Under the pieces are notes generated by a model that worked only from the letters and a program-made list of their open reading frames with translations, had not been told where the DNA came from and searched no databases. From a virus, in IMG/VR virus record IMGVR_UViG_3300031524_000031, positions 1 to 40,599 of that record: 40,599 nucleotides of DNA; one strand, 5' to 3'. The number at the start of each line of letters is the position of its first letter. The stretch's first letter is position 1. The position numbers and the translations under genes were made by a program. This document shows, in pieces, positions 1,419 through 32,364 of the stretch.

Positions 1419-1712
1419 ATGTCTATCTACACGAAATGGATTGGAAGGCACGTCGTCGTCCGCACCTTCTCGGCCGGCGTGCACATTGGCGTGCTCGCCG
1501 AGGTGGAAGGGCAGGCTGTTGTGCTCACCAATGCCCGCCGGCTCTGGGCGTGGAGCGGCGCATTTACGCTTTCTGAAATCGCAGAAACAGGGATCAAGCC
1601 GAGCGAAAGCCGCCTGTCGACTAACGTTCCGGAAATTCTGCTTATCCAGGCAATCGAGTTGATTCCAACCAGTGCTGCGGCCAGGAGTTCTTTCGATGCG
1701 ACTCACGAATAA
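1419..1712 (+). CDS. Small phage protein, DUF6948-like
   Basis: This 97-residue protein resembles, from memory, the small phage family annotated DUF6948. Typical features are the opening YTKWIGRHVVVRTFSAGVHI, a central LTNARRLWAWSG segment and a C-terminal region with LIQAIELIPT. The function of that family is not known to me. It is mostly beta, with no signal peptide. AGAAGAAG precedes the ATG. Its 3' end overlaps the start of the glycine-rich gene by 17 bases, and this pairing with a glycine-rich repeat protein recurs, as I recall, in other phages. The family assignment is unverified. Confidence 0.65.
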   Translation: MSIYTKWIGRHVVVRTFSAGVHIGVLAEVEGQAVVLTNARRLWAWSGAFTLSEIAETGIKPSESRLSTNVPEILLIQAIELIPTSAAARSSFDATHE

Positions 1713-2304
1713 CGGCTCCGGTGGCGGCTACGGCCCCGGCTACCGCTTCGGTGACGGCTTCGGTGACGGCGAAGGCTTCGGTGACGGCTTCGGTGACGGC
1801 TTCGGTGACGGCCACGGCTTCGGCGGCGGTTCCGGCTGCGGCTCCGGTTCCGGCGACGGTTCCGGCGACGGCGGCGGCTCTGGCGACGGTTCCGGCTCCG
1901 GCGGCGGCGAAGGCTTCGGTAACGGCTTCGGTAACGGCTTCGGTAACGGCTTCGGTGACGGCTTCGGTGACGGCTTCGGTGACGGCCACGGCTTCGGCGG
2001 CGGTTCCGGCTGCGGCTCCGGTTCCGGCTGCGGCTCCGGTTCCGGCGACGGTTCCGGCGACGGTTCCGGCGACGGTTCCGGCGACGGTTCCGGCTCCGGT
2101 TCCGGCGAAGGCTTCGGTAACGGCTTCGGTAACGGCTTCGGTGACGGCTTCGGTGACGGCTTCGGTGACGGCTTCGGTGACGGCCACGGCTTCGGCGGCG
2201 GTTCCGGCTGCGGCTCCGGTTCCGGCTGCGGCTCCGGCTCTGGCGACGAATCCGACGACGACGAATCCGACGACGACGAATCCGACGACGACTCCGGTAT
2301 ATAG
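1696..2304 (+). CDS. Glycine-rich repeat protein with acidic tail
   Basis: This 202-residue protein consists almost wholly of GFGDG, GFGNG and SGSGDG repeats, organised in three larger blocks that each contain [15 protein letters not shown]. It ends with three DESDDD-type acidic units before SGI. It is strongly acidic, presumably disordered, and contains regularly spaced cysteines. I chose the ATG at 1696 because AGGAG at 1683-1687 is ideally placed and the start overlaps the preceding gene, as expected for coupled genes. The antisense frame is also open (Ser/Pro/Lys repeats), a consequence of the repeat, and is not preferred. The function is unknown. The stop codon lies inside another CGGTATATAG element. 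Confidence 0.7.
1745..2247. repeat. Three-block GC-rich repeat within the glycine-rich gene
   Basis: The 12-bp unit GGCTTCGGTGAC (and its AAC variant) and the 12-bp unit TCCGGCGACGGT recur in tandem. Three higher-order copies, centred near 1820, 1995 and 2190, share the same order of units but differ in copy number, as expected from slippage or unequal recombination. Confidence 0.8.
2295..2304 (+). promoter_or_regulatory. CGGTATATAG element at the end of the glycine-rich gene
   Basis: An exact CGGTATATAG contains the stop codon of the glycine-rich gene. The next feature downstream is the terminator at 2370, so if it fires it would give only a very short transcript or reinforce read-through into the primase gene. 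Confidence 0.35.
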
Positions 2305-2369
2305 CTGCCATCGCGGGCCATGCCGCGGCGTAGATTGCATGGCGGACGTTTCCTCCTGAGCCCAAACTT

Positions 2370-4072: not shown

Positions 4073-4768
4073 ATGATTCAGCAGCGACTAGTCGTATATT
4101 CCGGGGGCATGGATTCGTTCACGCTCCTGCATCACGTCCTCCGCCTGCGAGGGCCGTCGATCATCCGCACGATCGGCTTCGACTACGGCCAGCGCCATCG
4201 CAGGGAGCTCGATGTCGCCGCCAAGGTCTGCGACTTCCTCGGGATCGAGCGGATCGTGGTCAATCTGACCAGTCTGCGCCCGCTGTTGTCGGCAAGCGCA
4301 TTGACCAATCCCGACATGCTGATGCCGGAAGGCCACTACGAAGCGGCCAGCATGTCACAGACCGTCGTGCCTGGCCGCAACACGATCATGCTGTCAATCG
4401 CAATGGGCGTTGCGGAATCCGCGCTGGGCGAAGACGATGTCGCGACGGTGTACTACGGGGCGCACAGCGGCGATCATCACATCTACCCCGACTGCCGGCC
4501 GAAGTTTTATGACAGCATGCGTAAGGTTTTCGCCGACGCAACCGAGGGCCGCGTCGGCCTTGAAGCTCCGTTCCTGTGGGGCAGCAAGACGACTATCCTC
4601 AGGGCTGGACAGAAAATGGGCCTAGATTACGGTAAAACGTATACCTGCTACGCCGGGGGCGAGCTTGCATGCGGCAAATGCGGCTCTTGCCAGGAGAGGC
4701 TGGCCGCTTTCTCGGAGATCGGGGCGACCGATCCGCTAGATTACCAATCCCGTGAGATTTTTAAGTAG
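4073..4768 (+). CDS. queC: 7-cyano-7-deazaguanine synthase QueC
   Basis: QueC converts 7-carboxy-7-deazaguanine to preQ0 using ATP and ammonia. The 231-residue protein has the PP-loop ATP pyrophosphatase motif SGGMDS at 10-15, the family stretch FDYGQRHRREL, VPGRN and YYGAHSGDHHIYPDCR. It ends with a zinc site of C192, C200, C203 and C206 (CYAGGELACGKCGSC). Length is normal for QueC, and there is no amidotransferase (Gat) fusion of the kind phage 9g uses to make archaeosine-type G+. It is transcribed alone, between two hairpins, from the 22-bp element shared with folE. With folE, queD, queE, queF and dpdA it forms a DNA-modification pathway. Confidence 0.95.
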   Translation: MIQQRLVVYSGGMDSFTLLHHVLRLRGPSIIRTIGFDYGQRHRRELDVAAKVCDFLGIERIVVNLTSLRPLLSASALTNPDMLMPEGHYEAASMSQTVVPGRNTIMLSIAMGVAESALGEDDVATVYYGAHSGDHHIYPDCRPKFYDSMRKVFADATEGRVGLEAPFLWGSKTTILRAGQKMGLDYGKTYTCYAGGELACGKCGSCQERLAAFSEIGATDPLDYQSREIFK

Positions 4769-4871: not shown

Positions 4872-4881
4872 CGGTATAACT
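4872..4881 (+). promoter_or_regulatory. CGGTATAACT promoter-like element
   Basis: CGGTATAACT, preceded by CCGGAAAAGT as at 1370, lies about 48 bases before the ATG at 4929. The same 10-mer occurs at 7049. Confidence 0.45.
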
Positions 4882-4928
4882 TGCTTAGCGGCCTGATAAC
4901 CAGCGCCGTCTTTCGAGGAGATCGTGAT

Positions 4929-5795
4929 ATGGCAACCAAGTCCGTCAAGGTCGCTGCTTTGCGCCAGGCCCTCGCCGCCCCTAAGGCCGCCGCCCTCGCC
5001 GCCCCTGTTGCTGCGCCGGAGCCTGTCGCCGCCCCTGTTGCTGCGCCCGAGCCCGCTGCCGCCCCTGTTGCTGCGCCGGAGCCCGCTGCCGCCCCTGTTG
5101 CTGCGCCGGAGCCTGTTGCTACGCCCGAGCCTGTCGCCGCCCCTGTTGCTGCGCCCGAGCCCGCTGCCGCCCCTGTTGCTGCGCCGGAGCCTGTTGCTAC
5201 GCCCGAGCCTGTCGCCGTCGCAACCGTTTTCAGCGCGCTGTCCGATGCCGCCAGGACCGTCGACCCGACCGCCGTCGCGCAGCTCCCGACCGAGGCCCCG
5301 CAGGTCTTCCTGAAGCGGCTGGTCCAGGCGGTTTCCCAGGCAGCCGACCCGGTTTGGGAAGCGCTCGGCGAGCCCTCGCAAACCTGGTACAACACGGCAG
5401 CCGAGTCGATCGAATGCGGCGCCGCCATTGCTGAGCCGGCCGGCTTTGTCGCGAACGCGCCCGTCGCTAAGCACGCTGCTGCTGCCGCTAAGACCAAGGC
5501 GCCGCCCGCCCCCAAGGCCGCCAAGCCGGCGAAGGCGCCGCCCGCCCCCAAGGCCGCCAAGCCGGCGAAGGCGCCGCCCGCCCCCAAGACGCCCAAGGCC
5601 CCCGGAATCGTGGCGATCGCGCGCAAGCTGATCGTGACCCACCCTGATCCGCTGACCCTGACCAAAGAGACGGCGCGCGCCCTGATGGCCGCGAAAGCGC
5701 CCAAGCTCGTGATCACGGATGCGACTCTCGGCGCTGTGATCTCCGATACGCTGGCTACGATTCGCATGGCGGTCGAGGCCGGTCGGTTCAAGTAA
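4929..5795 (+). CDS. Ala/Pro/Lys-rich repeat protein with C-terminal domain
   Basis: This 288-residue protein has an N-terminal basic start (MATKSVKVAALRQAL). A long Pro/Ala linker with APVAAPEP repeats runs from about residue 20 to 95. A helical domain follows (about 100-180, including FLKRLVQAVSQAADPVWEAL). Then comes a histone-H1-like AKAPPAPKAAKP triple repeat and a C-terminal helical domain ending in DTLATIRMAVEAGRFK. GAGGAG at 4915-4920 sets the ATG at 4929. A lysine/alanine/proline linker next to a small folded domain suggests nucleic-acid binding or a flexible tether. I recall similar modular proteins in other phages, without a known function. The long antisense frames over this region are compositional shadows. 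Confidence 0.75.
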   Translation: MATKSVKVAALRQALAAPKAAALAAPVAAPEPVAAPVAAPEPAAAPVAAPEPAAAPVAAPEPVATPEPVAAPVAAPEPAAAPVAAPEPVATPEPVAVATVFSALSDAARTVDPTAVAQLPTEAPQVFLKRLVQAVSQAADPVWEALGEPSQTWYNTAAESIECGAAIAEPAGFVANAPVAKHAAAAAKTKAPPAPKAAKPAKAPPAPKAAKPAKAPPAPKTPKAPGIVAIARKLIVTHPDPLTLTKETARALMAAKAPKLVITDATLGAVISDTLATIRMAVEAGRFK

Positions 5796-5816: not shown

Positions 5817-5826
5817 CGGTATATTG
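5817..5826 (+). promoter_or_regulatory. CGGTATATTG promoter-like element upstream of the transferase gene
   Basis: CGGTATATTG lies 50 bases before the GTG at 5877. Its last four bases form the foot of the long hairpin at 5823-5860, so promoter and hairpin are physically joined. Confidence 0.4.
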
Positions 5827-5860
5827 AGGGAGGGAGAGGGGAACCTTTCCCTCCCTCAAT
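5823..5860 (+). terminator. 17-bp hairpin between the 4929 and 5877 genes
   Basis: Bases 5823-5839 pair with 5844-5860 (one G-U pair) around a GGAA tetraloop. The outer 13 bp (5823-5835 with 5848-5860) are perfect. It may terminate the 4929 transcript. Because it begins inside the CGGTATATTG element, it could equally be the 5' leader structure of the 5877 transcript. Only a short T stretch (5862-5864) follows. Confidence 0.55.
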
Positions 5861-5876
5861 CTTTGCGGAGACGGAC

Positions 5877-6761
5877 GTGGTCGGATTTTTTTCTGAGTCG
5901 GAGCTGTCCCCAACATATTCATCGTCCCGAGAACAAATAATTGCGTCAATTCGAGCGCAGAACAGAAGTAACGTACACAATTTTAGTATAGGAACGCTAT
6001 CTTGCTACTTTCGACTGCTCTCCTTACCGGATGATAATGTACTTTGGGAGGATTGTGTTCTATTTCTTTCAGGGCTTCCAGGGGCCGCAAGGCGAAAAAC
6101 CTTTGTGTACAAATCGGAATGCGCCCCGAATTTATTGCGAAAGTGGCGAACAGAAGGAGTTGTATATAGTATCAACAATATTGGTGCGGGCGCGGGCAAG
6201 TTTAGTGAAACAGTTTATGATCTTGATGCTGTATTTTCCCGAAACTCGTACCCCAGCTCGAATAAATACTACCGTCGGATAACAAGTCCATTAAATTGGA
6301 TGGCAGCAAGATACGACGTTCGTCCAATTTATATATCAGATAGACAAGCGGTCTCGCGCCTGCATAGTAAGTGGGTGGCGTATAAAATAGCGCAGCCCGA
6401 TACATTTAAGATGATGTTTCCAAAAGCCAGGTATCTGCGTTGTTTGGATATCGCACTAGCACGGCCGCATGAATATACGACATTTGGCGCGTTTACACAC
6501 ACAGGAGAGCTGCAAGCCGTTCGAGTCGTATCAATCGAGGCGGCTATAGTGTACGACCTGGCATTTTTTGCTAATACGTGGGACGCGCCATCTAATCTTG
6601 TTGAACATTTTGCTGTATTTGGAATGAAAAGACTGCACGAGCTAGGCTGCCGGACTTTGAATACAGGCTCCGGCCTTAACAAAAAGTTGTCAGCATACAA
6701 AGAACATTGGCCATTCAGCCATCTGATAAGCTATGCTTATCCGAAGTTGCCGGGAGCCTGA
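5877..6761 (+). CDS. GNAT/FemAB-like acyl- or aminoacyl-transferase (putative)
   Basis: The 294-residue product has, in its C-terminal half, a pattern typical of the GNAT-fold FemAB/DUF2156 group. A strand pair at about 201-218 (TTFGAFTHTGELQAVRVV) and YDLAFFAN lead into an amphipathic helix (EHFAVFGMKRLHELGC) and then NTGSGLNKKLSAYKEHWP (262-279), close to the end-motif of that fold. The N-terminal half is unrecognised. Start is GTG with GGAG just upstream. The gene is strikingly AT-richer than its neighbours and uses A/T-ending codons, which suggests recent acquisition. It sits between queC and folE/dpdA, so it could modify the amine of preQ1, but host targets such as a peptide or lipid are equally possible. 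No function is proven. Confidence 0.5.
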   Translation: MVGFFSESELSPTYSSSREQIIASIRAQNRSNVHNFSIGTLSCYFRLLSLPDDNVLWEDCVLFLSGLPGAARRKTFVYKSECAPNLLRKWRTEGVVYSINNIGAGAGKFSETVYDLDAVFSRNSYPSSNKYYRRITSPLNWMAARYDVRPIYISDRQAVSRLHSKWVAYKIAQPDTFKMMFPKARYLRCLDIALARPHEYTTFGAFTHTGELQAVRVVSIEAAIVYDLAFFANTWDAPSNLVEHFAVFGMKRLHELGCRTLNTGSGLNKKLSAYKEHWPFSHLISYAYPKLPGA

Positions 6762-6764
6762 CAG

Positions 6765-7037
6765 ATGATCGAGCAGCGCCCACTCCGCCCCGATGAGATC
6801 GCCCGCATTCTGGCAGTGGATACCACGTTCCACGTGCATCTGCGTCGCGGGCCGCATGATGTCCAGAATGAGAGCTTTCCGACGCTTTTACTTGCTCGTC
6901 AGCGGCTTACCGAGATCGAGCTGCATCTCCCTAAAGGATCACGGCTGCCGGTCATTTACGCCGCTTCTGCAAGCGGGAGGACTGACTACGTCCCACAAAG
7001 TTTCTTGGCGAAAAGACCTATTACAGGCTTGTGTTAA
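6765..7037 (+). CDS. Hypothetical protein, 90 aa
   Basis: Starts three bases after the transferase gene, with GGGAG upstream. The product has an N-terminal helix (RPDEIARILAVD), a beta-rich middle with HVHLRRGPHDVQNESFP and a second helix (LLARQRLTEIELHL). I recall similar small proteins in other phages but know no function. Its base composition returns to the phage average, so it is not part of the AT-rich insertion. Confidence 0.6.
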   Translation: MIEQRPLRPDEIARILAVDTTFHVHLRRGPHDVQNESFPTLLLARQRLTEIELHLPKGSRLPVIYAASASGRTDYVPQSFLAKRPITGLC

Positions 7038-7048
7038 CTAGCGCCATG

Positions 7049-7058
7049 CGGTATAACT
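7049..7058 (+). promoter_or_regulatory. CGGTATAACT promoter-like element
   Basis: Identical 10-mer to 4872-4881. It is flanked by the inverted pair GCCAT (7043-7047) and ATGGC (7061-7065), which could form an operator. The next gene starts 57 bases downstream. Confidence 0.45.
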
Positions 7059-7115
7059 ATATGGCTAGAGAGAGCCCGGACACCGCGCCTCGGGGATCAG
7101 GGGCAGGACACTGAG

Positions 7116-7436
7116 ATGACCACCATTACTCTAACGCATCCCGAGGACAGCGCTCGGGAATTCCAAGCCGGCGACAGCTACGATCGCTCCGGACCTGTCG
7201 ATGACGACGACATCGAGCGCGCTCTGTCTGCGGCTCTTGCCGTGCTGCGCGAAGCAGGCGTGACGCCGGAAGCGGCCGACGCCGCATATCGCAGGCAATG
7301 GGAAGAATTTGACGACGAAACCCCAATGACCGGCCTGGCAGTCGTCTGGATCGAAGCCCGCGAGGTCGCGAACCGCGCGCTGACCTCCACCTGGTTCACG
7401 CGCGCTAATCTGGGTGTTGGCCTGCGGGCCATCTGA
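7116..7436 (+). CDS. Hypothetical acidic protein, 106 aa
   Basis: I do not recognise this protein. The N-terminal third is acidic and probably flexible (DRSGPVDDDDIERAL). The rest is helical (LSAALAVLREAGVTPEAADAA and VWIEAREVANRALTS), without signal or membrane segments. It is the first gene after the CGGTATAACT element at 7049 and is followed by two further small genes in the same direction, suggesting one short early transcript of small, possibly host-directed proteins. Confidence 0.6.
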   Translation: MTTITLTHPEDSAREFQAGDSYDRSGPVDDDDIERALSAALAVLREAGVTPEAADAAYRRQWEEFDDETPMTGLAVVWIEAREVANRALTSTWFTRANLGVGLRAI

Positions 7437-7496
7437 CGATGGGTGCTAAGACCGGCGCCTCAGAAATCCGCGCCATCCGTATACAGGAGAACGAAG

Positions 7497-7727
7497 ATGA
7501 ACGCCAAACACCTTAAAGTCATCGACAAGGCCGTCGCGCTGATCGAGGAAGCCAGAGGGCTGCTCGAAGGCGCCCGCGATGATGAACAGGACTACTTCGA
7601 CAATATGCCTGAGGGCATCCAGAATAGCGACAATGGCGCCAAAGCCCAGGAAGCGGTCAGCGAACTCGAAGAAGCGTGCAGCGCTCTCGGCGGCGTCCTC
7701 ACGTATCTCGATATCGCCAGCGAGTAG
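7497..7727 (+). CDS. Small acidic coiled-coil phage protein, 76 aa
   Basis: The ATG at 7497 has AGGAGA at 7485-7490. An upstream in-frame start at 7443 lacks one and would add an unconserved-looking leader. The product is helical: an N-terminal helix with LIEEARGLLEGA, the loop EQDYFDNMPEGIQNSDNG and a second helix with AVSELEEACSALGGVL. From memory, the DEQDYFDNMPE stretch is typical of a small protein family widespread in phages, of unknown function. It is probably a helical hairpin. Confidence 0.7.
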   Translation: MNAKHLKVIDKAVALIEEARGLLEGARDDEQDYFDNMPEGIQNSDNGAKAQEAVSELEEACSALGGVLTYLDIASE

Positions 7728-8013: not shown

Positions 8014-8676
8014 ATGCTTAAGCTAGACCCCGATGAGTTCCCAGCAGAGGCGCGCGAAGCTGTACGCACGCTAATCCGCTTCATAGGCGACGATCCCGAT
8101 CGGCCGGGCCTGCTTGATACGCCGCGCCGCTTCCTGCGCGCCTGGCGCGAGACCTGGGGCGCCGGCTACCGCGATCTGCCGAAGAACTGCCTGCGCGTGT
8201 TCATGAACGAGGGCGCCGTCTACAACCAGATGGTTTTTCAGGGCAACGTCATGCTGGCATCTACTTGCGAGCATCATCTTGCGCCCTTCTTCGGCGTTGC
8301 GCATGTCGCCTACATCGCCGAAGAAGGCGGCCCCGGACTGCTTGGTCTCTCCAAGCTGGCGCGGATCGTTACCCACTGCTCGCGCCGGCTCCAGGTCCAG
8401 GAGCGGCTGACCGAAGAGATCGCGGATACGTTGTCAGGTGTCCTTCGTCCCTGCCGGCCACTGTCGAAGACGCAGCGGGAGAGCGGCCGAATTCCAGTAG
8501 CCTCGGTGGGCGTTCAAATTCGCGCGACGCATCTTTGTATGACGACGCGCGGCGTTCAGCAGCCGCATTCGCTCACTACCACGACTTCGTTGAGAGGCGC
8601 ATTCCTCGATGATCCGACGACGCACTCCGAATTCCTCTCCCAATGCGCCAACGCCAGCCAGACGCCGCGTGGCTGA
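8014..8676 (+). CDS. folE: GTP cyclohydrolase I FolE
   Basis: FolE converts GTP to 7,8-dihydroneopterin triphosphate, the first step of both folate and 7-deazaguanine synthesis. The 220-residue protein contains the family core STCEHHLAPFFGVAHVAYI. Zinc ligands C85, H88 and C175 are in place, as are QVQERLTEEIA and the C-terminal HLCMTTRGVQQPHS and TTTTSLRGAF stretches. AGGAGGA precedes the ATG. Compared with bacterial enzymes it has roughly 15 extra residues (about 146-162, CRPLSKTQRESGRIPVA) before the final strand that carries the third zinc ligand. It overlaps dpdA and shares its promoter-like element with queC, which places it in the DNA-modification pathway rather than in folate supply. 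Confidence 0.95.
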   Translation: MLKLDPDEFPAEAREAVRTLIRFIGDDPDRPGLLDTPRRFLRAWRETWGAGYRDLPKNCLRVFMNEGAVYNQMVFQGNVMLASTCEHHLAPFFGVAHVAYIAEEGGPGLLGLSKLARIVTHCSRRLQVQERLTEEIADTLSGVLRPCRPLSKTQRESGRIPVASVGVQIRATHLCMTTRGVQQPHSLTTTTSLRGAFLDDPTTHSEFLSQCANASQTPRG

Positions 8677-9712
8677 CGGCCGCGAGCCTGTCGTAAAAAT
8701 TATCCTTGACAGCGGGGCTTACAGCGTGTGGAAGCTGGGCAAGCAGATCAACCTGCCCGAATATTGCGATTACATCGACCGCAACCGCGACTGGATCGCG
8801 CACTATGTCAACCTGGATGTGATCAATCCGGGCAATCCCGAAGCTGCGGCGGCAGCAAGTTTCGAGAATTTAGTCTACATGCGGTCACGCGGTCTCGACC
8901 CGATGCCGGTGTTCCACGTCGGCGAAGACATCTCCTGGCTCTACAAGATGCTCGACCTTGGCTGCCGGCACATCGGGCTCTCCGCATCATCGCTAGTCTC
9001 GCGTAATCAGGTCGACGACTGGTACGCGCATGCCTGGTCGTACTTAGTTAACAGCGATGGACTGCCGCTCGTCCGCGTGCATGCGTTTGGCGAAGCGCGC
9101 TACAAATCTCTGGTGAAGTTCCCGTGGGCGAGCGCGGATTCGGCGAGCTGGATTTACGAAGCTGAACGAGCCGCGACAATGCTTCTCGAGGATGGACGCA
9201 AAGTCAACATGCGGAGAGACGGCATCTCTTTGGCGAACGCGCAATATGTTGGCGCGATGGATGATTTGGATCGCGGCGCCCTCAACACTCTGGCTGCGAC
9301 TGTGGGGCTCAAAGATTTATCGCTGCTTGATCGCTGCGACACAGATTCGCGAGCACTGCGTCTGTTCATAGCAGCCCTCTTCTACAAAGCACAGGTCGAG
9401 CGCATCAACAAGAAATGCCCGATCCGCTTCCATCCGCCAGGATTCATCAAGAATGTTCCGCGCACCGATCTCTCTGTTATCCATCTGCCGGAGATGGAGT
9501 TTTACTTGGTGTGCGGGACCAACCCGCTCGCATTAGCCGCGATAGCATTCCTCGGATATCGACATGTGCTCGCCTCGTTCTTCGTCATTAAACAGCTCAA
9601 GAGCTCGGGTTATTCGTCGGGATACGCGGCTGACCCGATCTCTGCAATACGAGCAGATAAATCCTATGCGCAATACCTTGTAATATTGGAGAAGTACCTT
9701 GAAAAGCGGTGA
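8669..9712 (+). CDS. dpdA: DpdA-type 7-deazaguanine DNA transglycosylase
   Basis: Phage DpdA proteins, relatives of tRNA-guanine transglycosylase, exchange guanine in DNA for a free 7-deazaguanine base. This protein (347 residues from the GTG at 8669) has the opening KIILDSGAYSVW with an Asp (D14) equivalent to the TGT active-site DSG motif. It also has YVNLDVINPGNP, PVFHVGED, GLSASSL, and the characteristic VRVHAFGEARYKSLVKFPW followed by SADSASW (155-161), where a second Asp (D157) may be the nucleophile. I prefer GTG 8669 because it overlaps the folE stop. An in-frame ATG at 8609 would add 20 Arg/Pro-rich residues inside folE. It overlaps the sliding clamp by 14 bases. The subfamily (DpdA1-4) is not assigned. 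Confidence 0.85.
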   Translation: MADGREPVVKIILDSGAYSVWKLGKQINLPEYCDYIDRNRDWIAHYVNLDVINPGNPEAAAAASFENLVYMRSRGLDPMPVFHVGEDISWLYKMLDLGCRHIGLSASSLVSRNQVDDWYAHAWSYLVNSDGLPLVRVHAFGEARYKSLVKFPWASADSASWIYEAERAATMLLEDGRKVNMRRDGISLANAQYVGAMDDLDRGALNTLAATVGLKDLSLLDRCDTDSRALRLFIAALFYKAQVERINKKCPIRFHPPGFIKNVPRTDLSVIHLPEMEFYLVCGTNPLALAAIAFLGYRHVLASFFVIKQLKSSGYSSGYAADPISAIRADKSYAQYLVILEKYLEKR

Positions 9713-16927: not shown

Positions 16928-17380
16928 ATGTCCGACAAACTAACACAGCTTGGTCATCGCTCGGAGACTGCTGCCTCGCCATACGACGCGCTCCTCGAAA
17001 GGATCGCGGTCGCGGACGGGCGCATGTTGGGAACAGTTATCCGGTTAAGTGCGCCGGAATTCACTTCAATCTGCCCAGTGACCGGTCAGCCGGATTTCGC
17101 GACAATTTACGTCGACTACGTACCGAGAAACTGGCTGATCGAATCCAAGTCCTACAAGCTGTTCTTGGGCTCATTCCGCAGCTTCGGGACCTTCCACGAG
17201 GAAGCGGTGGCGATAATCCGTGATCGGCTTGTGCTCGCACTCGATCCGGTCTATCTGCGTGCTGCCGCTTTCTGGTACCCACGCGGCGGCATCCCCATCG
17301 ACGTCTTCTGCCAATATGGCAGGCTGCCGGCGAACTGCTGGGCGCCCGATCTTGGTATTCCGACCTTCCGGGGCCGGTAA
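16928..17380 (+). CDS. queF: NADPH-dependent preQ0 reductase QueF
   Basis: QueF reduces the nitrile of preQ0 to the aminomethyl group of preQ1 with two NADPH. The 150-residue protein is the short (unimodular) form. It contains EFTSICPVTGQPDFATIYV, with catalytic C49 and D56. The NADPH-binding signature ESKSYKLF is at 72-79 and the substrate-binding pair H90-E91 is in GTFHEE, followed by PRGGIPIDV. All residues needed for reduction are present. This argues against the archaeal QueF-like amidinotransferase, which lacks the NADPH motif. GAAGGAG precedes the ATG. Its position between the ssDNA-binding and RecA-like genes is unusual, as the pathway genes are scattered over 21 kb. It implies that the DNA base is preQ1 rather than preQ0. 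Confidence 0.93.
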   Translation: MSDKLTQLGHRSETAASPYDALLERIAVADGRMLGTVIRLSAPEFTSICPVTGQPDFATIYVDYVPRNWLIESKSYKLFLGSFRSFGTFHEEAVAIIRDRLVLALDPVYLRAAAFWYPRGGIPIDVFCQYGRLPANCWAPDLGIPTFRGR

Positions 17381-22057: not shown

Positions 22058-23449
22058 ATGAAACGTCACAGTATCAGTCCCGGAAGCGACTATGCTTCCT
22101 TTATCCAGAACAAGCATCTCAAGGCGGCGCCAATGGGCATCGACTTGCCTCTGCCGATGCATCCTGATTTGTTCGATTTTCAGCAGCTAACCGTAAGCTA
22201 TTGTTTGCGCATCGGAACCGGAGCCCTTTTTCTCGACACCGGCCTGGGCAAAACATTCATTGAGCTGGAACTGGCGAAGCAGTGTATCGCGCATACTAAC
22301 CGCCCCGCGCTGATCCTGACGCCGCTGGCCGTAGCACAACAGACTAAAGCTGAGGCTGATCGCTTCGGTTACGCTGCCAAAATCATCCGCACCCAGTCAG
22401 AGGCGGGTCCCGCAACTAATATCTGCAATTACGAAATGATGCACCAGCTCGATTTCAGCGCCTACTCTTGTTTGATACTAGACGAGTCCTCGATACTCAA
22501 AAATTTCGGCGGCAAAACAGCACAATCATTGGTTCAAGCAGGGGCCGCAGTTCCTTTTCGGTTCTGCGCGTCTGCCACGCCGGCGCCAAACGATCACATC
22601 GAGCTGGGGATGCACTCCGAGTTTCTTGGACGCATGTCTATCGGCGAGATGCGCGCGCGCTGGTTTGTCAATGACAAAGGAAACACCTCGACTTGGCGCC
22701 TGAAAGGCCACGCTGTTGCATCATTCTGGGACTGGGTCGCATCATGGGCGGTATTGGCGGAAAAGCCCAGCGATCTTGGTTTCCCCAGCTCGCGCTTCGA
22801 GTTGCCGCCTCTGCGCGTTGAGGAGCATGTCGTCAATCATATCGTGGACGCGCGATCCGGCGTCGGATTCTTCTCGCCACTCTCGGCCACCAATCTGCAT
22901 GGCGTAAAGCGATCAACCGTCGAGGGCCGCGCGGCGCTGGTAAAAGAGATCGTGCAACAAGAACCAAACGAAGCCTGGGTGATTTGGTGCGATACAGATT
23001 ATGAAGCTGATGCCTTGCACCGAGCACTGCCAGGAGTAGTTGAAGTGCGCGGCAGTATGAGCCCGCATGACAAAGAAAAAGCGCTGCTGGCCTTCGCCGC
23101 CGGTAGTCGGAAGCAGATCATCACAAAGCCCTCGATTGCCGGCTTTGGACTGAATTGGCAGCACTGCGCGCGAGTCGTCTTTGTCGGCCGATCGTTCTCC
23201 TACGAAACCTGGTACCAGGCCGTTCGCCGATGCTGGCGATTTGGTCAGAAGCGAGAAGTTGTTGTCCATCTGATCTTCGCCGATGGCGAGCGCCATATCG
23301 ACGCCATCATCGGCGAGAAAGCGGAACGGCATGCCAGCATGAAGCTGGAGATGCGCGCCGCCGCCTCGCGCGCAATCCGAGATATCCCATTGGTCGATGA
23401 AGTCATTCTCGCCAATAAAACGCAAGGAAACCTGCCAGCATGGCTATAA
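22058..23449 (+). CDS. SNF2/DEAD-like helicase (superfamily 2)
   Basis: The 463-residue protein has the SF2 motifs in order: I LDTGLGKT (about 59-66), II LDESSIL, III ASATPAPND and VI QAVRRCWRFGQ. This pattern (QAVRR...GQ in VI) is the SNF2-like type common in phages. I give the ATG at 22058, but the in-frame ATG at 22133, preceded by AAGGCGG, is a reasonable alternative. The 3' end overlaps the DNA methyltransferase by 10 bases. The adjacency suggests the helicase/translocase and methyltransferase act together on DNA, as in many phage genomes, but no target site can be read from sequence. Confidence 0.85.
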   Translation: MKRHSISPGSDYASFIQNKHLKAAPMGIDLPLPMHPDLFDFQQLTVSYCLRIGTGALFLDTGLGKTFIELELAKQCIAHTNRPALILTPLAVAQQTKAEADRFGYAAKIIRTQSEAGPATNICNYEMMHQLDFSAYSCLILDESSILKNFGGKTAQSLVQAGAAVPFRFCASATPAPNDHIELGMHSEFLGRMSIGEMRARWFVNDKGNTSTWRLKGHAVASFWDWVASWAVLAEKPSDLGFPSSRFELPPLRVEEHVVNHIVDARSGVGFFSPLSATNLHGVKRSTVEGRAALVKEIVQQEPNEAWVIWCDTDYEADALHRALPGVVEVRGSMSPHDKEKALLAFAAGSRKQIITKPSIAGFGLNWQHCARVVFVGRSFSYETWYQAVRRCWRFGQKREVVVHLIFADGERHIDAIIGEKAERHASMKLEMRAAASRAIRDIPLVDEVILANKTQGNLPAWL

Positions 23450-24333
23450 CCTGTATCGACCAAGCACATGGCGAGAACTTCGCACTCTACAATGGGGACT
23501 GCGTTTCCTTACTCGAACAACTGCCTGATCACTGCATCGACTTCTGCATCTACTCGCCCCCATTCAGCAATTTGTTTGTCTACTCAAAAAGCCCGCTGGA
23601 TATGGGAAATTCGGTAGATGATGCCGAATTCTTTAAGCATTATGACTTCTTGATACAGCAATTGTCGTGCATCATGAAGCCTGGGCGCGAGATCGCCGTG
23701 CATTGCTCAGACCTGCCACACCACAAATGGAAAGATGGCTACATCGGCTTGAAGGATTTCAGCGGCGCGCTGATCCGGGCGCATGAAAGCCGCGGGCACA
23801 TCCTGACCAGTCGAATTACGGTCTGGAAGTCGCCGGTCGTTGAAATGCAGCGCACTAAGGCGATTGGGCTCCTATACAAGCAACTACGAAAAGACAGCAC
23901 CATGTCTCGAACAGGGATGCCGGATTATGTGCTGGTATTTAGGATGCTTGGCGATAATCCTGTGCCCATCGAGCATACTTTCGAGAATTTCTCGCTGGAC
24001 CAATGGCAGGAGTGGGCTTCGCCAGTCTGGATGACTATTAACCAGTCCAATACATTGAACAAGGATGGCGCGAAAGAGGAAAACGACGAGCGACATATCG
24101 CTCCACTCCAGCTTGATTTAATCGAGCGGTGCGTAATACTTTGGAGTAATCCGGGAGAAGTTGTGTTAAGCCCATTTGCCGGCATCGGATCAGAAGGGTA
24201 TATCAGCTTGCAGCAAGGTCGACGCTTTGTTGGCGTTGAGCTGAAACCAACATACTTCCAACAAGCCGCGAAGAACCTGCAAAGCGTCGGCAGAATCAAT
24301 ACCGCGGGTTTCTTCGGGCAAAGCGTTATATAA
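23440..24333 (+). CDS. DNA methyltransferase, beta class (SPPF motif)
   Basis: The 297-residue protein has the beta-class order. The catalytic motif IV SPPF (39-42) lies near the N-terminus after FALYNGDCVSLLEQLPD, and the AdoMet-binding motif I SPFAGIGSEG lies near the C-terminus, followed by FVGVELKPTYFQQA. SPP(Y/F) favours N4-cytosine methylation, although some N6-adenine enzymes share it. It has no cognate endonuclease nearby, so it is an orphan protective or regulatory enzyme. It overlaps the helicase. In a phage whose guanine is hypermodified, an additional cytosine or adenine mark would give a second, independent layer of restriction protection. Confidence 0.85.
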   Translation: MAITCIDQAHGENFALYNGDCVSLLEQLPDHCIDFCIYSPPFSNLFVYSKSPLDMGNSVDDAEFFKHYDFLIQQLSCIMKPGREIAVHCSDLPHHKWKDGYIGLKDFSGALIRAHESRGHILTSRITVWKSPVVEMQRTKAIGLLYKQLRKDSTMSRTGMPDYVLVFRMLGDNPVPIEHTFENFSLDQWQEWASPVWMTINQSNTLNKDGAKEENDERHIAPLQLDLIERCVILWSNPGEVVLSPFAGIGSEGYISLQQGRRFVGVELKPTYFQQAAKNLQSVGRINTAGFFGQSVI

Positions 24334-24355: not shown

Positions 24356-24787
24356 ATGATTACAATAGAACGCTACCATGACTTTTCTTATGGCCACCGT
24401 GTGGTCGGCCACGAAGGGAAGTGCGCCGGGCTTCATGGGCACAACGGACGCGTGACGTTCACCTGCGTCGCCGAGAAGCTGGACGAGCTTGGGCGGATCG
24501 TCGATTTCAGCGTTCTAAAGTCCAAGCTCTGCCAGTGGATAGAGGACAACTGGGACCACAAGATGCTGCTGTGGAGGAAGGACCCGGTGCACGCTATTCT
24601 CGGACGTACCGATAACGACAGCATCGTGAACAGTATCCAGCCGGTGTCCTTTAACCCGACCGCCGAGAACCTGGCGCACTATCTTCTCACTACTGTTGCG
24701 CCACTGCGGATGCAGGGCACCGGTATCACTGTTATCGCTGTCAAGTTTGAAGAGACGAGGAAATGTTCCGCCGTTGCAACCCTATAA
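24356..24787 (+). CDS. queD: 6-carboxytetrahydropterin synthase QueD
   Basis: QueD converts dihydroneopterin triphosphate to 6-carboxy-5,6,7,8-tetrahydropterin. The 143-residue protein has the zinc ligands H14, H27 and H29 (SYGHR, LHGHNG), the catalytic C23 in EGKCAGLHGHNG, DHKMLL and a late EETRKCSA, all diagnostic. The length is normal. It is followed after 12 bases by queE, the next step in the pathway, and the two are probably one unit. AGGCGG precedes the ATG weakly. It acts on the product of FolE, encoded 16 kb away. Confidence 0.95.
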   Translation: MITIERYHDFSYGHRVVGHEGKCAGLHGHNGRVTFTCVAEKLDELGRIVDFSVLKSKLCQWIEDNWDHKMLLWRKDPVHAILGRTDNDSIVNSIQPVSFNPTAENLAHYLLTTVAPLRMQGTGITVIAVKFEETRKCSAVATL

Positions 24788-24799
24788 GGAATTGACCCT

Positions 24800-25507
24800 A
24801 TGCTCGGAATGAATCCAATCGACGGCCCCCACACGTTGTCGGAGGATTTTAAGGTCAATTCGATCTGGCGGACGATACAAGGCGAGGGACCTTGGTCGGG
24901 ACTGCCGGCAATTTTCGTGAGATTCAGCGGCTGTTGTTTGCGCTGTACCTGGTGCGATACTTCGTTCGAGACAGGAACCTGGCGCAACCTGCCAATGCTC
25001 GCTGATGAAATCCATTCGCTGGTTCGATCTACTGGGCACAGGCGGGTCGTGTTCACCGGCGGCGAGCCGATGCTGTGGCCGCTTGGTGAGCTGATTACGA
25101 TGCTGCACGACTCCGTCGAAGCGCAGATCGAAACTGCTGGTACCGTTTGGCCCGAGGGACTGGATCGGGTGTTCGAGCGGGCCAACGTGAGCATCGTCTG
25201 CTCGCCAAAAACGCCCAAGGTGCATCCCAAGATCATCCATTACGCAGACGCTTGGAAATACATCATCAGGGTGGGCTGCGTCGATCCGCAAGACGGCCTG
25301 CCGATCGGCAGCACTCAGCGCGGCGTCGACAATCCGACGCAGAAGCTCTACCGGGCGGATACGAGCCCGAACAAGATATTCGTGCAGCCCTGCGACGAGG
25401 ACGATCCGCGCAAGAACGCGGCCAACTTGCAGGAAGCTGTCCTGTCATCGCTACGTTTCGGGTATCGCCTCAGCCTTCAAATCCATAAGATCGCCGGCGT
25501 GCCTTGA
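24800..25507 (+). CDS. queE: 7-carboxy-7-deazaguanine synthase QueE
   Basis: QueE is a radical-SAM enzyme that rearranges 6-carboxytetrahydropterin to 7-carboxy-7-deazaguanine. The 235-residue protein has the cluster motif CX3CX2C at C45, C49 and C52 (CCLRCTWC), the opening IWRTIQGEGPWSGLPAIFVR, the TGGEPML motif and ETAGTV. The alternative CX14CX2C form seen in some bacteria is not used. It follows queD after 12 bases (AAGGA upstream of ATG) and is followed by the DnaB-like helicase after one base, so modification and replication genes are translated together. Its product is the substrate of QueC. Confidence 0.95.
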   Translation: MLGMNPIDGPHTLSEDFKVNSIWRTIQGEGPWSGLPAIFVRFSGCCLRCTWCDTSFETGTWRNLPMLADEIHSLVRSTGHRRVVFTGGEPMLWPLGELITMLHDSVEAQIETAGTVWPEGLDRVFERANVSIVCSPKTPKVHPKIIHYADAWKYIIRVGCVDPQDGLPIGSTQRGVDNPTQKLYRADTSPNKIFVQPCDEDDPRKNAANLQEAVLSSLRFGYRLSLQIHKIAGVP

Positions 25508-30888: not shown

Positions 30889-31278
30889 ATGACCGACTCG
30901 CACGTTCCCCTTAACCGCACCGCATATGAGGCTGCTCGCGTCATATATGATGCCGCCAGGGCCTCCACCGGTGCCACCTACCGCGCCGCCGTGGCCCGCG
31001 CCGACGACGCATACGCGGCCACCATGGCCTCCATCGACGACGCATACGCGACCGCTGTGGCCTCCGCCGCCACCTGCGTCGCCCATTCCGACGCCATCTT
31101 TGTCTGCGCTGCTGCCCGAGCCGCCGACATCTGCGCCTCCGCCGCCGCCCTCGCCGCTTACGAAGTCACCCTGACCTCCATCTACGCCGCATACAATGCC
31201 GGCATGGCCTCCGCCTATGCCGCCTACGCCGCATACGATGTCGACACGATCCCCGCCGACGTCATAAAATCCTCTTGA
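30889..31278 (+). CDS. Alanine/tyrosine-rich 11-residue repeat protein, 129 aa
   Basis: The protein is built of Ala-rich segments spaced by aromatic residues, with about 11-residue spacing (for example DDAYAATMASI, DDAYATAVASA). It contains no recognised domain. The pattern is that of an amphipathic hendecad helix and is similar in style to the repeats of the next two genes, but it lacks their N-terminal LDLARKHAQDF module. The start follows the sigma-70-like promoter at 30834, and no ribosome-binding site is obvious. The function is unknown; possibilities include a DNA-coating, membrane-associated or stress-protective protein, none supported directly. Confidence 0.65.
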   Translation: MTDSHVPLNRTAYEAARVIYDAARASTGATYRAAVARADDAYAATMASIDDAYATAVASAATCVAHSDAIFVCAAARAADICASAAALAAYEVTLTSIYAAYNAGMASAYAAYAAYDVDTIPADVIKSS

Positions 31279-31327
31279 CCGGCTCACCCTTTTACGCACA
31301 TTCAGCGCAGCAAGGAGAATCCGTCAC

Positions 31328-31861
31328 ATGTCTGCTAGTGAAATCGCTCTCGCCTTGGTCCGCGAAGGCCAAACGGCTCGTTTCGAGAAATTTTTCGGAG
31401 AACCAGTCCCACTGACCGAGGCGCTCGCGCTTGATTTTGCACGTAAGCATGCACAGGACTTTCGCTTTGGCTGGGAGGTGCAGGACTTTGACTTTGGCTG
31501 GGGGGCGCAGCATCTGCTTTCGCCCTCCGCCCGCGCCGCATACCGCGCCACCTTCGCCTCCGCCGACGCTGCATTCGATGCCGCCGTGGTCTCCGCTAAC
31601 GCCGAGTACAGTGCCACCTTCGCCTCCGTCGACGCTGCATTCGCTGCCGCCATGGTCTCCGCTAACGCCTCGTACCGTGCCCCCTTCGCCTCCGCCGACG
31701 CTGCATTCGATGCCGCCATGCTTCCCATCCGCGCCGCGTACCGTGCCACCTTCGCCTCCGCCGACGCTGCATTCGCTGCCGCCATGGTCTCCGCCCACGC
31801 CGTGCATGACGCTGCTAAGGTAGTGGCTTTTGCCCGTGCTTATTGCTGGTCTGCCCCATAG
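31328..31861 (+). CDS. LDLARKHAQDF-module protein with four 22-residue repeats, 177 aa
   Basis: The N-terminal 60 residues carry the shared module (ALDFARKHAQDFRFGW, with a second DFDFGW repeat). From about residue 72, four exact-length 22-residue repeats follow, each with two 11-residue halves of the form YRATFASADAA and FDAAVVSANAE, encoded by a 66-bp tandem repeat. The C-terminus is short. AAGGAGAAT precedes the ATG. Amphipathic helices with an 11-residue period fit hendecad coiled coils or lipid-binding helices. It is a paralogue of the 31927 gene, with about 23 bases of near-identical upstream sequence. The function is unknown. Confidence 0.75.
   Translation: MSASEIALALVREGQTARFEKFFGEPVPLTEALALDFARKHAQDFRFGWEVQDFDFGWGAQHLLSPSARAAYRATFASADAAFDAAVVSANAEYSATFASVDAAFAAAMVSANASYRAPFASADAAFDAAMLPIRAAYRATFASADAAFAAAMVSAHAVHDAAKVVAFARAYCWSAP
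31541..31804 (+). repeat. Four 66-bp tandem repeats inside the 31328 gene
   Basis: Copies begin at 31541, 31607, 31673 and 31739, each starting TACCG or TACAG and containing TTCGCCTCCG and GACGCTGCATTCG. Differences between copies are scattered (GAT/GCT, GTG/ATG, AACGCC/CCCACGCC). In-frame length (22 codons) means copy number can change without frameshift. Confidence 0.9.
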
Positions 31862-31926
31862 CGGGCTGTCGCACGACTAGACTTTCTGCAGCCCCATAAC
31901 TCAACACAGCAAGGAGAATTCGTCAC

Positions 31927-32364
31927 ATGCCCTCCCAGATCACTCTGACCCAGCTTCGCAAAGCCGGCGCCGACAAAAGACAAACGGATCTTTTTAAGGA
32001 GCTGTTCGGAGAATCAGTCACACTGACTCTAGACCTTGCGCGCAAGCATGCTCAGGACTTCGATTTCGGCTGGATAGCGGGGAATCTGCTTGTTTCGCCC
32101 TCCGCCCGCGCCGTTTTCGATGCCGCCATAGTCTCTGCCGTCGCCGCATACAAGATAGCTATGGTCTCCGCTAGCGCCTCATATGATGCCGCCATGAACT
32201 TCGCCATCGCTGCATACCGCACCGCCACAATCTCCGCCAACGTCACATACAATACTGCCAAGGCCTCCGCTAGCGCCGCGCACCTGGTCGATGTAGCCTC
32301 CGCCCGCGCCGCATACAAAGCCGCTGTGGCAGTGGCTTTTGCCTGCGCCTATTTGTCCGAATAA
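31927..32364 (+). CDS. LDLARKHAQDF-module protein with degenerate hendecad repeats, 145 aa
   Basis: This is the most diverged paralogue of the 31328 gene. It opens with MPSQITLTQLRKAGADKR, contains SVTLTLDLARKHAQDFDFGW and LLVSPSARAVF, and then about eight 11-residue units with an aromatic or hydrophobic residue at the first position (AYKIAMVSASA, SYDAAMNFAIA, AYRTATISANV). It ends in a hydrophobic AVAFACAYLSE. The ribosome-binding region AGCAAGGAGAATTCGTCAC is almost the same as that at 31309-31327. Gene copies next to each other with such divergence suggest old duplication plus continued repeat turnover. Confidence 0.7.
   Translation: MPSQITLTQLRKAGADKRQTDLFKELFGESVTLTLDLARKHAQDFDFGWIAGNLLVSPSARAVFDAAIVSAVAAYKIAMVSASASYDAAMNFAIAAYRTATISANVTYNTAKASASAAHLVDVASARAAYKAAVAVAFACAYLSE

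What the first reader, a model, noticed from the sequence alone, without database searches (positions are those of the whole stretch)
5877..6761. AT-rich orphan transferase between modification genes: possible preQ1 tailoring enzyme
The gene is clearly AT-richer than the DNA around it, implying recent import. Its C-terminal half resembles the GNAT/FemAB fold, which moves acyl or aminoacyl groups to amines. preQ1 offers a primary amine, and formyl- and methyl-preQ1 DNA derivatives are already known from other phages, so acylated preQ1 is chemically reasonable. A further N-acyl or aminoacyl derivative would be new. Placement between queC and folE/dpdA is supportive but not proof.
Basis: inference. 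Interest (0 to 1): 0.7.

Follow-up and report, generated by a model that had tools for sequence, protein, structure and literature searches.

The report
Phage FemX-like enzyme for preQ1-DNA tailoring
A foreign-looking phage gene encodes a GNAT/FemX-type transferase whose relatives occur only in phages that also carry the genes that put the modified base preQ1 into DNA, so it probably hangs an extra acyl or amino-acid group on that base, a DNA modification I found no report of.

Summary
ORF 5877-6761 (+, 294 aa) is the most AT-rich stretch of this phage contig (GC 0.455, GC3 0.42; mean 0.588) and sits between queC and folE/dpdA. It hits no Pfam, PHROGs, NCBIfam, PDB or cultured-phage entry by sequence. 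I found six further members in uncultured phages, about 30-40% identical. Every member with usable context shares its genome with queF (which makes preQ1) and a dpdA/TGT gene; five are in or directly beside that cluster, one translationally coupled as ORF-queC-folE-queF-dpdA. The window also encodes queF (16928-17380), so preQ1 with its free amine is predicted. An alignment-based AlphaFold model (pLDDT 76, pTM 0.78) matches the double-GNAT aminoacyl-tRNA-dependent transferases (lysyl-PG synthase, FemX, streptothricin Sba18/Sbb17). Profile comparison favours LPG-synthase and FemAB-like proteins over CoA-GNATs; the CoA loop is absent, and the invariant Lys275 aligns with FemX Lys305. Best reading: a FemABX/DUF2156-like transferase that acylates, probably aminoacylates, the aminomethyl group of preQ1 (free or in DNA). 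Acceptor and donor are inferred; no chemistry was tested. New variant of 7-deazaguanine DNA modification.

The parts
5877..6761 (+). The gene in question: 294-aa GNAT/FemABX-like transferase; C-terminal GNAT domain about residues 147-290, invariant W235, N262, G264, K275, Y288
4073..4768 (+). queC (preQ0 synthase), 231 aa, no amidotransferase domain
   Evidence: Pfam PF06508 E=2e-53, NCBIfam TIGR00364 over cut-off
4881..5795 (+). Ala/Pro/Lys-rich protein; similar proteins lie at the same place in related dpdA phages with or without the transferase gene
8014..8676 (+). folE (GTP cyclohydrolase I)
   Evidence: Pfam PF01227 E=5e-53
8636..9712 (+). dpdA (DNA guanine transglycosylase)
   Evidence: PHROG 887 E=2e-32; aligned with known phage DpdA
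16928..17380 (+). queF (preQ0 to preQ1 nitrile reductase), 150 aa, with CPVTGQPDF and ESKS motifs; makes the primary amine
   Evidence: Pfam PF14489 E=1e-26, alignment A3
24356..24787 (+). queD (6-carboxytetrahydropterin synthase)
   Evidence: Pfam PF01242 E=9e-25
24800..25507 (+). queE (radical SAM CDG synthase)
   Evidence: Pfam PF04055 E=6e-10; next to queD
6765..7727 (+). Three small ORFs lying with the transferase gene in the extra DNA between the Ala-rich gene and folE; function unknown

Best explanation
The gene encodes a GNAT-fold transferase of the FemABX/DUF2156 (aminoacyl-tRNA-dependent) type, found so far only in phages. It most likely transfers an acyl group, probably an aminoacyl group from a charged host tRNA, to the aminomethyl nitrogen of preQ1, either as the free base before DpdA inserts it or as dPreQ1 in DNA, giving an N-(amino)acylated 7-deazaguanine that further protects phage DNA from restriction. 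Shown here: a complete preQ1 pathway plus DpdA in the contig; co-occurrence of the family with queF and dpdA/TGT in every resolvable case; the fold; absence of the CoA-binding loop; alignment of the invariant lysine with the FemX catalytic lysine. Inferred: the acceptor (preQ1), the donor (aminoacyl-tRNA rather than acyl-CoA), the level (base or DNA), and the biological role.
For: (1) Context. DNA-pattern scans for motifs of the ORF alone (IMG/VR; GTDB genomes) found members without regard to neighbours. All with usable context carry queF and a dpdA/TGT gene: L024 ORF-queC-folE-queF-dpdA; L145 ORF-queC-folE-queF-dpdA with overlapping start/stop codons; L184 queC-ORF-CxxCxxCC-queF plus dpdA; L170 ORF-CxxCxxCC-queF-dpdA; L204 TGT/dpdA-queF-ORF-CxxCxxCC; G003 same genome; and the window. 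queF is uncommon even among dpdA loci: 6 of 80 carry it in the flanks sampled. (2) preQ1: the window has folE, queD, queE, queC, queF and dpdA; Streptococcus phage Dp-1 with a QueF-family protein and DpdA carries dPreQ1 (PMC6884629). (3) Fold: AF2 pLDDT 76, pTM 0.78. Foldseek hits include DUF2156 2hqy 1.5e-7, L-PGS 4v36 3.9e-7, DUF2156 5vrv 1e-6, Sba18/Sbb17 1.7e-6 and 2.5e-6, MprF, and FemX 6e-6. (4) hhalign: LPG_synthase_C P=3e-4 and Acetyltransf_6/FemAB-like P=9e-4, versus CoA-type Acetyltransf_1 P=0.85 and unrelated controls P=0.25-0.35; two members weakly hit LPG_synthase_C in Pfam. (5) The [RQ]xxGx[GA] CoA loop is missing at the GNAT site in all members; Lys275 is invariant 7/7 and aligns with the [FY]K lysine of FemAB-like proteins, which aligns with FemX residue 305. 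FemX Lys305 and DhpH-C Lys329 are the key residues in aa-tRNA-dependent GNATs (PMC12945691).
Against: TM-scores are moderate (about 0.45), and CoA-using tandem GNATs and N-myristoyltransferases also appear among the Foldseek hits. Sequence-level hhalign probabilities are modest (39% and 23%). The Lys275-FemX mapping is transitive, not a direct structural superposition. The alignment has only seven rows. No active-site geometry, donor or product was tested. Several queF+dpdA phages lack the gene, so it is accessory. The fold match by itself does not say whether the acceptor is preQ1, another nucleobase, a protein or tRNA.
Confidence: 0.5

Rival explanations
1. An acyl-CoA-dependent GNAT that acetylates or otherwise acylates the preQ1 amine.
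For: GNAT fold and link to queF/dpdA; CoA-dependent tandem GNATs such as VipF and the clavulanate-pathway GNAT are among the Foldseek hits.
Against: CoA pyrophosphate loop absent at the expected site in all members; no profile match to Acetyltransf_1 (P=0.85) while FemAB-like and LPG-synthase families match; invariant Lys aligns with the FemX catalytic Lys.
Confidence: 0.2
2. The enzyme is tied to the modification cluster but acts on something else: DpdA or another protein, tRNA-bound preQ1/queuosine precursor, or adenine as Mom does.
For: GNAT enzymes in phages often act on host proteins, and Mom-family GNATs act on DNA adenine (PMC7824862). Donor use like that of its structural relatives would also allow peptide acceptors.
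Against: Co-occurrence with queF specifically, not just with phage genes or dpdA; no profile similarity to Mu Mom (P=0.14); the Ala-rich neighbour also occurs in phages without the gene.
Confidence: 0.15
3. It is a member or functional equivalent of a known dPreQ1 tailoring enzyme (the published dPreQ1 formyl- or methyltransferases, DpdN/DpdM).
For: Same genomic niche (dPreQ1 phages); formyl transfer is an acyl transfer.
Against: No family member in 50,697 phage records at E<=10 with four different queries; no match in the Cellulophaga phage phiSM cluster. The only non-pathway enzyme-like gene there between queF and dpdA is the CxxCxxCC protein, which is unrelated and co-occurs with our gene. 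The defining paper is not held, so the reference sequences could not be compared directly.
Confidence: 0.1
4. Incidental cargo (moron) or a non-catalytic GNAT relic that happens to sit there.
For: AT-rich recent insertion; accessory in distribution.
Against: Seven divergent members keep catalytic-type residues and the same queF/dpdA context in different phage backbones (33% GC in L024, 51% in L145, 59% in the window), with translational coupling in L145.
Confidence: 0.05

Closest known systems
FemABX aminoacyl-tRNA-dependent transferases (FemX; natural-product relatives DhpH-C, Orf11; Sba18/Sbb17)
   Same: GNAT-based fold match by Foldseek; invariant [FY]-K lysine aligned with FemX Lys305; no CoA loop
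   Different: No significant sequence hit in Pfam or PDB; N-terminal half and the VHNFS, HxxWV and FxxxRY motifs private to the family; context is DNA-base modification rather than cell wall or antibiotic
LPG_synthase_C / DUF2156 (lysyl-phosphatidylglycerol synthase, MprF C-terminal domain)
   Same: Among the best Foldseek hits and best profile-profile match; N-x-G motif aligned
   Different: Below Pfam cut-off; no membrane domain; found only in phages
7-deazaguanine DNA modification (DpdA phages such as 9g, CAjan, Dp-1; dPreQ1, formyl- and methyl-dPreQ1)
   Same: Complete folE-queD-queE-queC-queF-dpdA set; gene in or beside the cluster
   Different: Adds a GNAT/FemX-type tailoring gene that I found in no cultured phage
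Mom (phage Mu adenine modification, GNAT superfamily)
   Same: GNAT-fold enzyme linked to phage DNA hypermodification
   Different: No detectable profile similarity; linked to preQ1 rather than adenine
CmoY amide ligase (Synechococcus phage S-B43, 5-carboxymethylcytosine-glycine amide)
   Same: Conjugates an amino acid to a phage DNA base through an amide
   Different: ATP-dependent asparagine-synthetase-like ligase using the amino acid's amine; ours would use a base amine and an activated amino acid (PMC12783734)

Membership tests
GNAT-fold superfamily | Beta1-alpha1-alpha2-beta2-3-4-alpha3-beta5-alpha4-beta6 core | tested here: met
   Order of elements in the AF2 model, residues 147-288; 224 PDB Foldseek hits at E<=1e-3, the listed named ones being GNAT-fold proteins
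CoA-dependent GNAT acetyltransferases (PF00583) | [RQ]xxGx[GA] pyrophosphate-binding loop and profile match | tested here: not met
   Motif absent after beta4 in all members; hhalign P=0.85; no Pfam hit
FemABX / aminoacyl-tRNA-dependent GNATs | Double-GNAT architecture | tested here: inconclusive
   Matches of 190-260 columns to FemX, L-PGS and Sba18, but TM about 0.45 and low-confidence parts in the N-terminal half
FemABX / aminoacyl-tRNA-dependent GNATs | Catalytic lysine equivalent to FemX Lys305 / DhpH-C Lys329 | tested here: met
   Lys275 invariant 7/7; aligned through FemAB-like proteins to FemX residue 305; indirect alignment, no superposition
FemABX / aminoacyl-tRNA-dependent GNATs | Use of aminoacyl-tRNA as donor | not testable with these tools
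   Needs biochemistry
LPG_synthase_C (PF09924) | Score above Pfam gathering cut-off | tested here: not met
   Best E 0.05, below cut-off
dPreQ1 DNA modification pathway | folE, queD, queE, queC, queF and dpdA in one genome | tested here: met
dPreQ1 DNA modification pathway | dPreQ1 or derivative present in DNA | not testable with these tools
   Uncultured virus; needs LC-MS
Mom family | Profile similarity to Mu Mom | tested here: not met
   hhalign P=0.14, 22 columns
DpdM/DpdN dPreQ1 tailoring enzymes | Homology to the described proteins | tested here: inconclusive
   No homolog in the phage records or in the phiSM cluster, but the paper is not held

The most novel reading that the evidence does not exclude
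A phage enzyme that takes an amino acid from charged tRNA and attaches it through an amide bond to the aminomethyl group of preQ1 in DNA: aminoacylated DNA made by borrowing the translation machinery's activated amino acids.
Probability: 0.38. Interest if true: 0.88.

Novelty: new variant of a known kind. Interest (0 to 1): 0.64.

Why it matters
If true, it adds a new chemical step and a new enzyme family to phage 7-deazaguanine DNA modification, and would be the first case I know of (from memory and the papers searched) of a tRNA-type donor used to decorate a DNA base. It turns a vague 'GNAT near dpdA' into a directly testable one-gene hypothesis with predicted masses and a predicted catalytic lysine. 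Such bases would be new shields against restriction enzymes and, with a free alpha-amine, handles for labelling DNA.

Tried and rejected
Sequence-only family searches of the ORF (Pfam, PHROGs, NCBIfam, PDB, phages, plasmids) gave nothing. Single-sequence AlphaFold was useless (pLDDT 32) and was not used. Residue-pattern search with the lone sequence found no relatives; relatives came from the dpdA and queF scans and then from motif patterns. Weak profile hits L046:1055-1906, L156 and L078 were rejected as chance. GTDB pattern hits L173 and L175 are chance; L174 is the same virus in a MAG bin. A Helicobacter prophage weak hit (E 0.2) lies on the strand opposite the annotated features and was dropped. 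Considered and rejected: Mom homolog; generic CoA GNAT; product limited to dPreQ0, rejected because queF is present. A PDB search with one FemAB-like domain fragment gave only designed Armadillo repeats and was replaced by a full-length query.

Full report
Observation. The window is a 40,599-base IMG/VR virus record. ORF 5877-6761 is an intact 294-codon gene. Its GC is 0.455 and its GC3 0.42; the lowest-GC 885-bp stretch of the contig falls on it, against a mean of 0.588 and sd 0.037, and the other genes measured have GC3 0.57-0.80. It lies between queC and folE/dpdA, though an Ala/Pro/Lys-rich gene (4881-5795) and three small ORFs lie in between. In the related contig L010 (DpdA 46% identical) the queC, Ala/Lys-rich, folE and dpdA genes follow each other with about 100 bp where the window has 2.2 kb, and twelve related records show no copy. 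Import by horizontal transfer is therefore well supported. A MAG contig (PLUE01000003.1) holds a 99.9%-identical copy of the virus.

Pathway. Phage Dp-1, which has DpdA and a QueF-family protein, carries dPreQ1 (PMC6884629). dPreQ1, with a primary amine, is thus the predicted base here (inference).

Family. By sequence alone the ORF matched nothing in Pfam, PHROGs, NCBIfam, PDB, plasmids or 50,697 phage records. Scanning viral contigs for dpdA, then queF, and then for motifs of the ORF itself gave six further distinct members (L024, L145, L170 partial, L179/L183, L184, L204), 29-40% identical to the window protein. The ORF-only motif scans recovered all six without using neighbours. Context: L024 ORF-queC-folE-queF-dpdA; L145 ORF-queC-folE-queF-dpdA with overlapping start and stop codons; L170 ORF-CxxCxxCC-queF-dpdA; L184 queC-ORF-CxxCxxCC-queF, plus dpdA; L204 TGT-type dpdA-queF-ORF-CxxCxxCC; the L183 genome has queF and dpdA 35 kb away. 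The one record without them, L179's, is a 66-kb fragment carrying the same gene as L183. Only 6 of 80 dpdA loci carry queF in the flanks sampled, so the link is specifically to preQ1. The reverse does not hold: many queF+dpdA phages lack the gene, as expected for an optional tailoring step.

Structure. With the seven-row alignment AlphaFold2 gave pLDDT 76 and pTM 0.78; the C-terminal half has the GNAT order of elements. Foldseek against PDB placed DUF2156 proteins, lysyl-PG synthase, the aminoacyl-tRNA-dependent peptide synthases Sba18/Sbb17, MprF and FemX among the best hits (E 1.5e-7 to 6e-6), with some CoA tandem GNATs and N-myristoyltransferases too. Among viral predicted structures the best match is an uncharacterised Myoviridae protein (TM 0.53), followed by viral NMTs and phage GNATs. 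Profile-profile comparison separated the options: LPG_synthase_C P=3e-4 and Acetyltransf_6/FemAB-like P=9e-4, CoA-type Acetyltransf_1 P=0.85, DpdA and QueF controls 0.35 and 0.25; Mom P=0.14. The CoA-binding loop is missing and W235, N262, G264, K275 and Y288 are invariant. K275 aligns with the [FY]K lysine of FemAB-like proteins, and such a protein aligns so that this lysine meets FemX residue 305. FemX Lys305 and the equivalent DhpH-C Lys329 are the key residues of aminoacyl-tRNA-dependent GNATs, which are thought to work by substrate-assisted proton shuttling (PMC12945691).

Mechanism. Most likely the enzyme binds an activated acyl donor, probably aminoacyl-tRNA, and lets the preQ1 amine attack the ester carbonyl, with Lys275 assisting. 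Whether it acts on the free base or on DNA is open. Shown: gene set, co-occurrence, fold, conserved lysine. Inferred: donor, acceptor, product, role in restriction evasion.

Novelty. Formyl and methyl derivatives of dPreQ1 are known (Cui et al. 2023, NAR gkad657, from memory; the text is not held). In the papers searched I found no GNAT/FemX-type enzyme or aminoacyl derivative linked to DpdA. Amino-acid amides on phage DNA bases exist by another route (CmoY, PMC12783734). I therefore file it as a new variant of 7-deazaguanine DNA modification, with a categorically newer reading (tRNA-dependent aminoacylation of DNA) that remains open.

Noticed in passing
L184:2-1375 (-): The QueF gene of this phage carries an intein (splicing domain, HNH and HTH parts) inserted at the conserved catalytic cysteine stretch.
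   Followed up: no
L204:9107-9745, L184:1372-2022, L170:7379-8017, L222:6344-6997 (phiSM gp53), L224:7578-8228 (Pan1): A CxxCxxCC (PF03692, YkgJ-like; PHROG 16018) protein co-occurs with queF in all loci sampled that have it, often between queF and dpdA. It is a candidate second preQ1 tailoring enzyme, perhaps the published methyltransferase; not tested.
   Followed up: partly
window 1642-2359, 4881-5795, 30889-32364: Long Ala/Gly/Pro-rich repetitive reading frames; the 4881-5795 protein has counterparts at the same place in several dpdA phages (Ala/Lys-rich with a small conserved C-terminal domain).
   Followed up: partly
L174 / PLUE01000003.1: The same virus (99.9% identical) was binned into a gammaproteobacterial bog MAG; the contig runs about 9 kb past the window's end. 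At most a weak hint of the host.
   Followed up: partly
window 23440-24333: Probable DNA methyltransferase by eye (not searched), another relatively AT-rich gene of the contig (GC 0.50); it may add a further modification.
   Followed up: no
window 5822-5862: Inverted repeat TTGAGGGAGGGA...TCCCTCCCTCAA just upstream of the ORF, resembling a terminator of the preceding gene (read).
   Followed up: no
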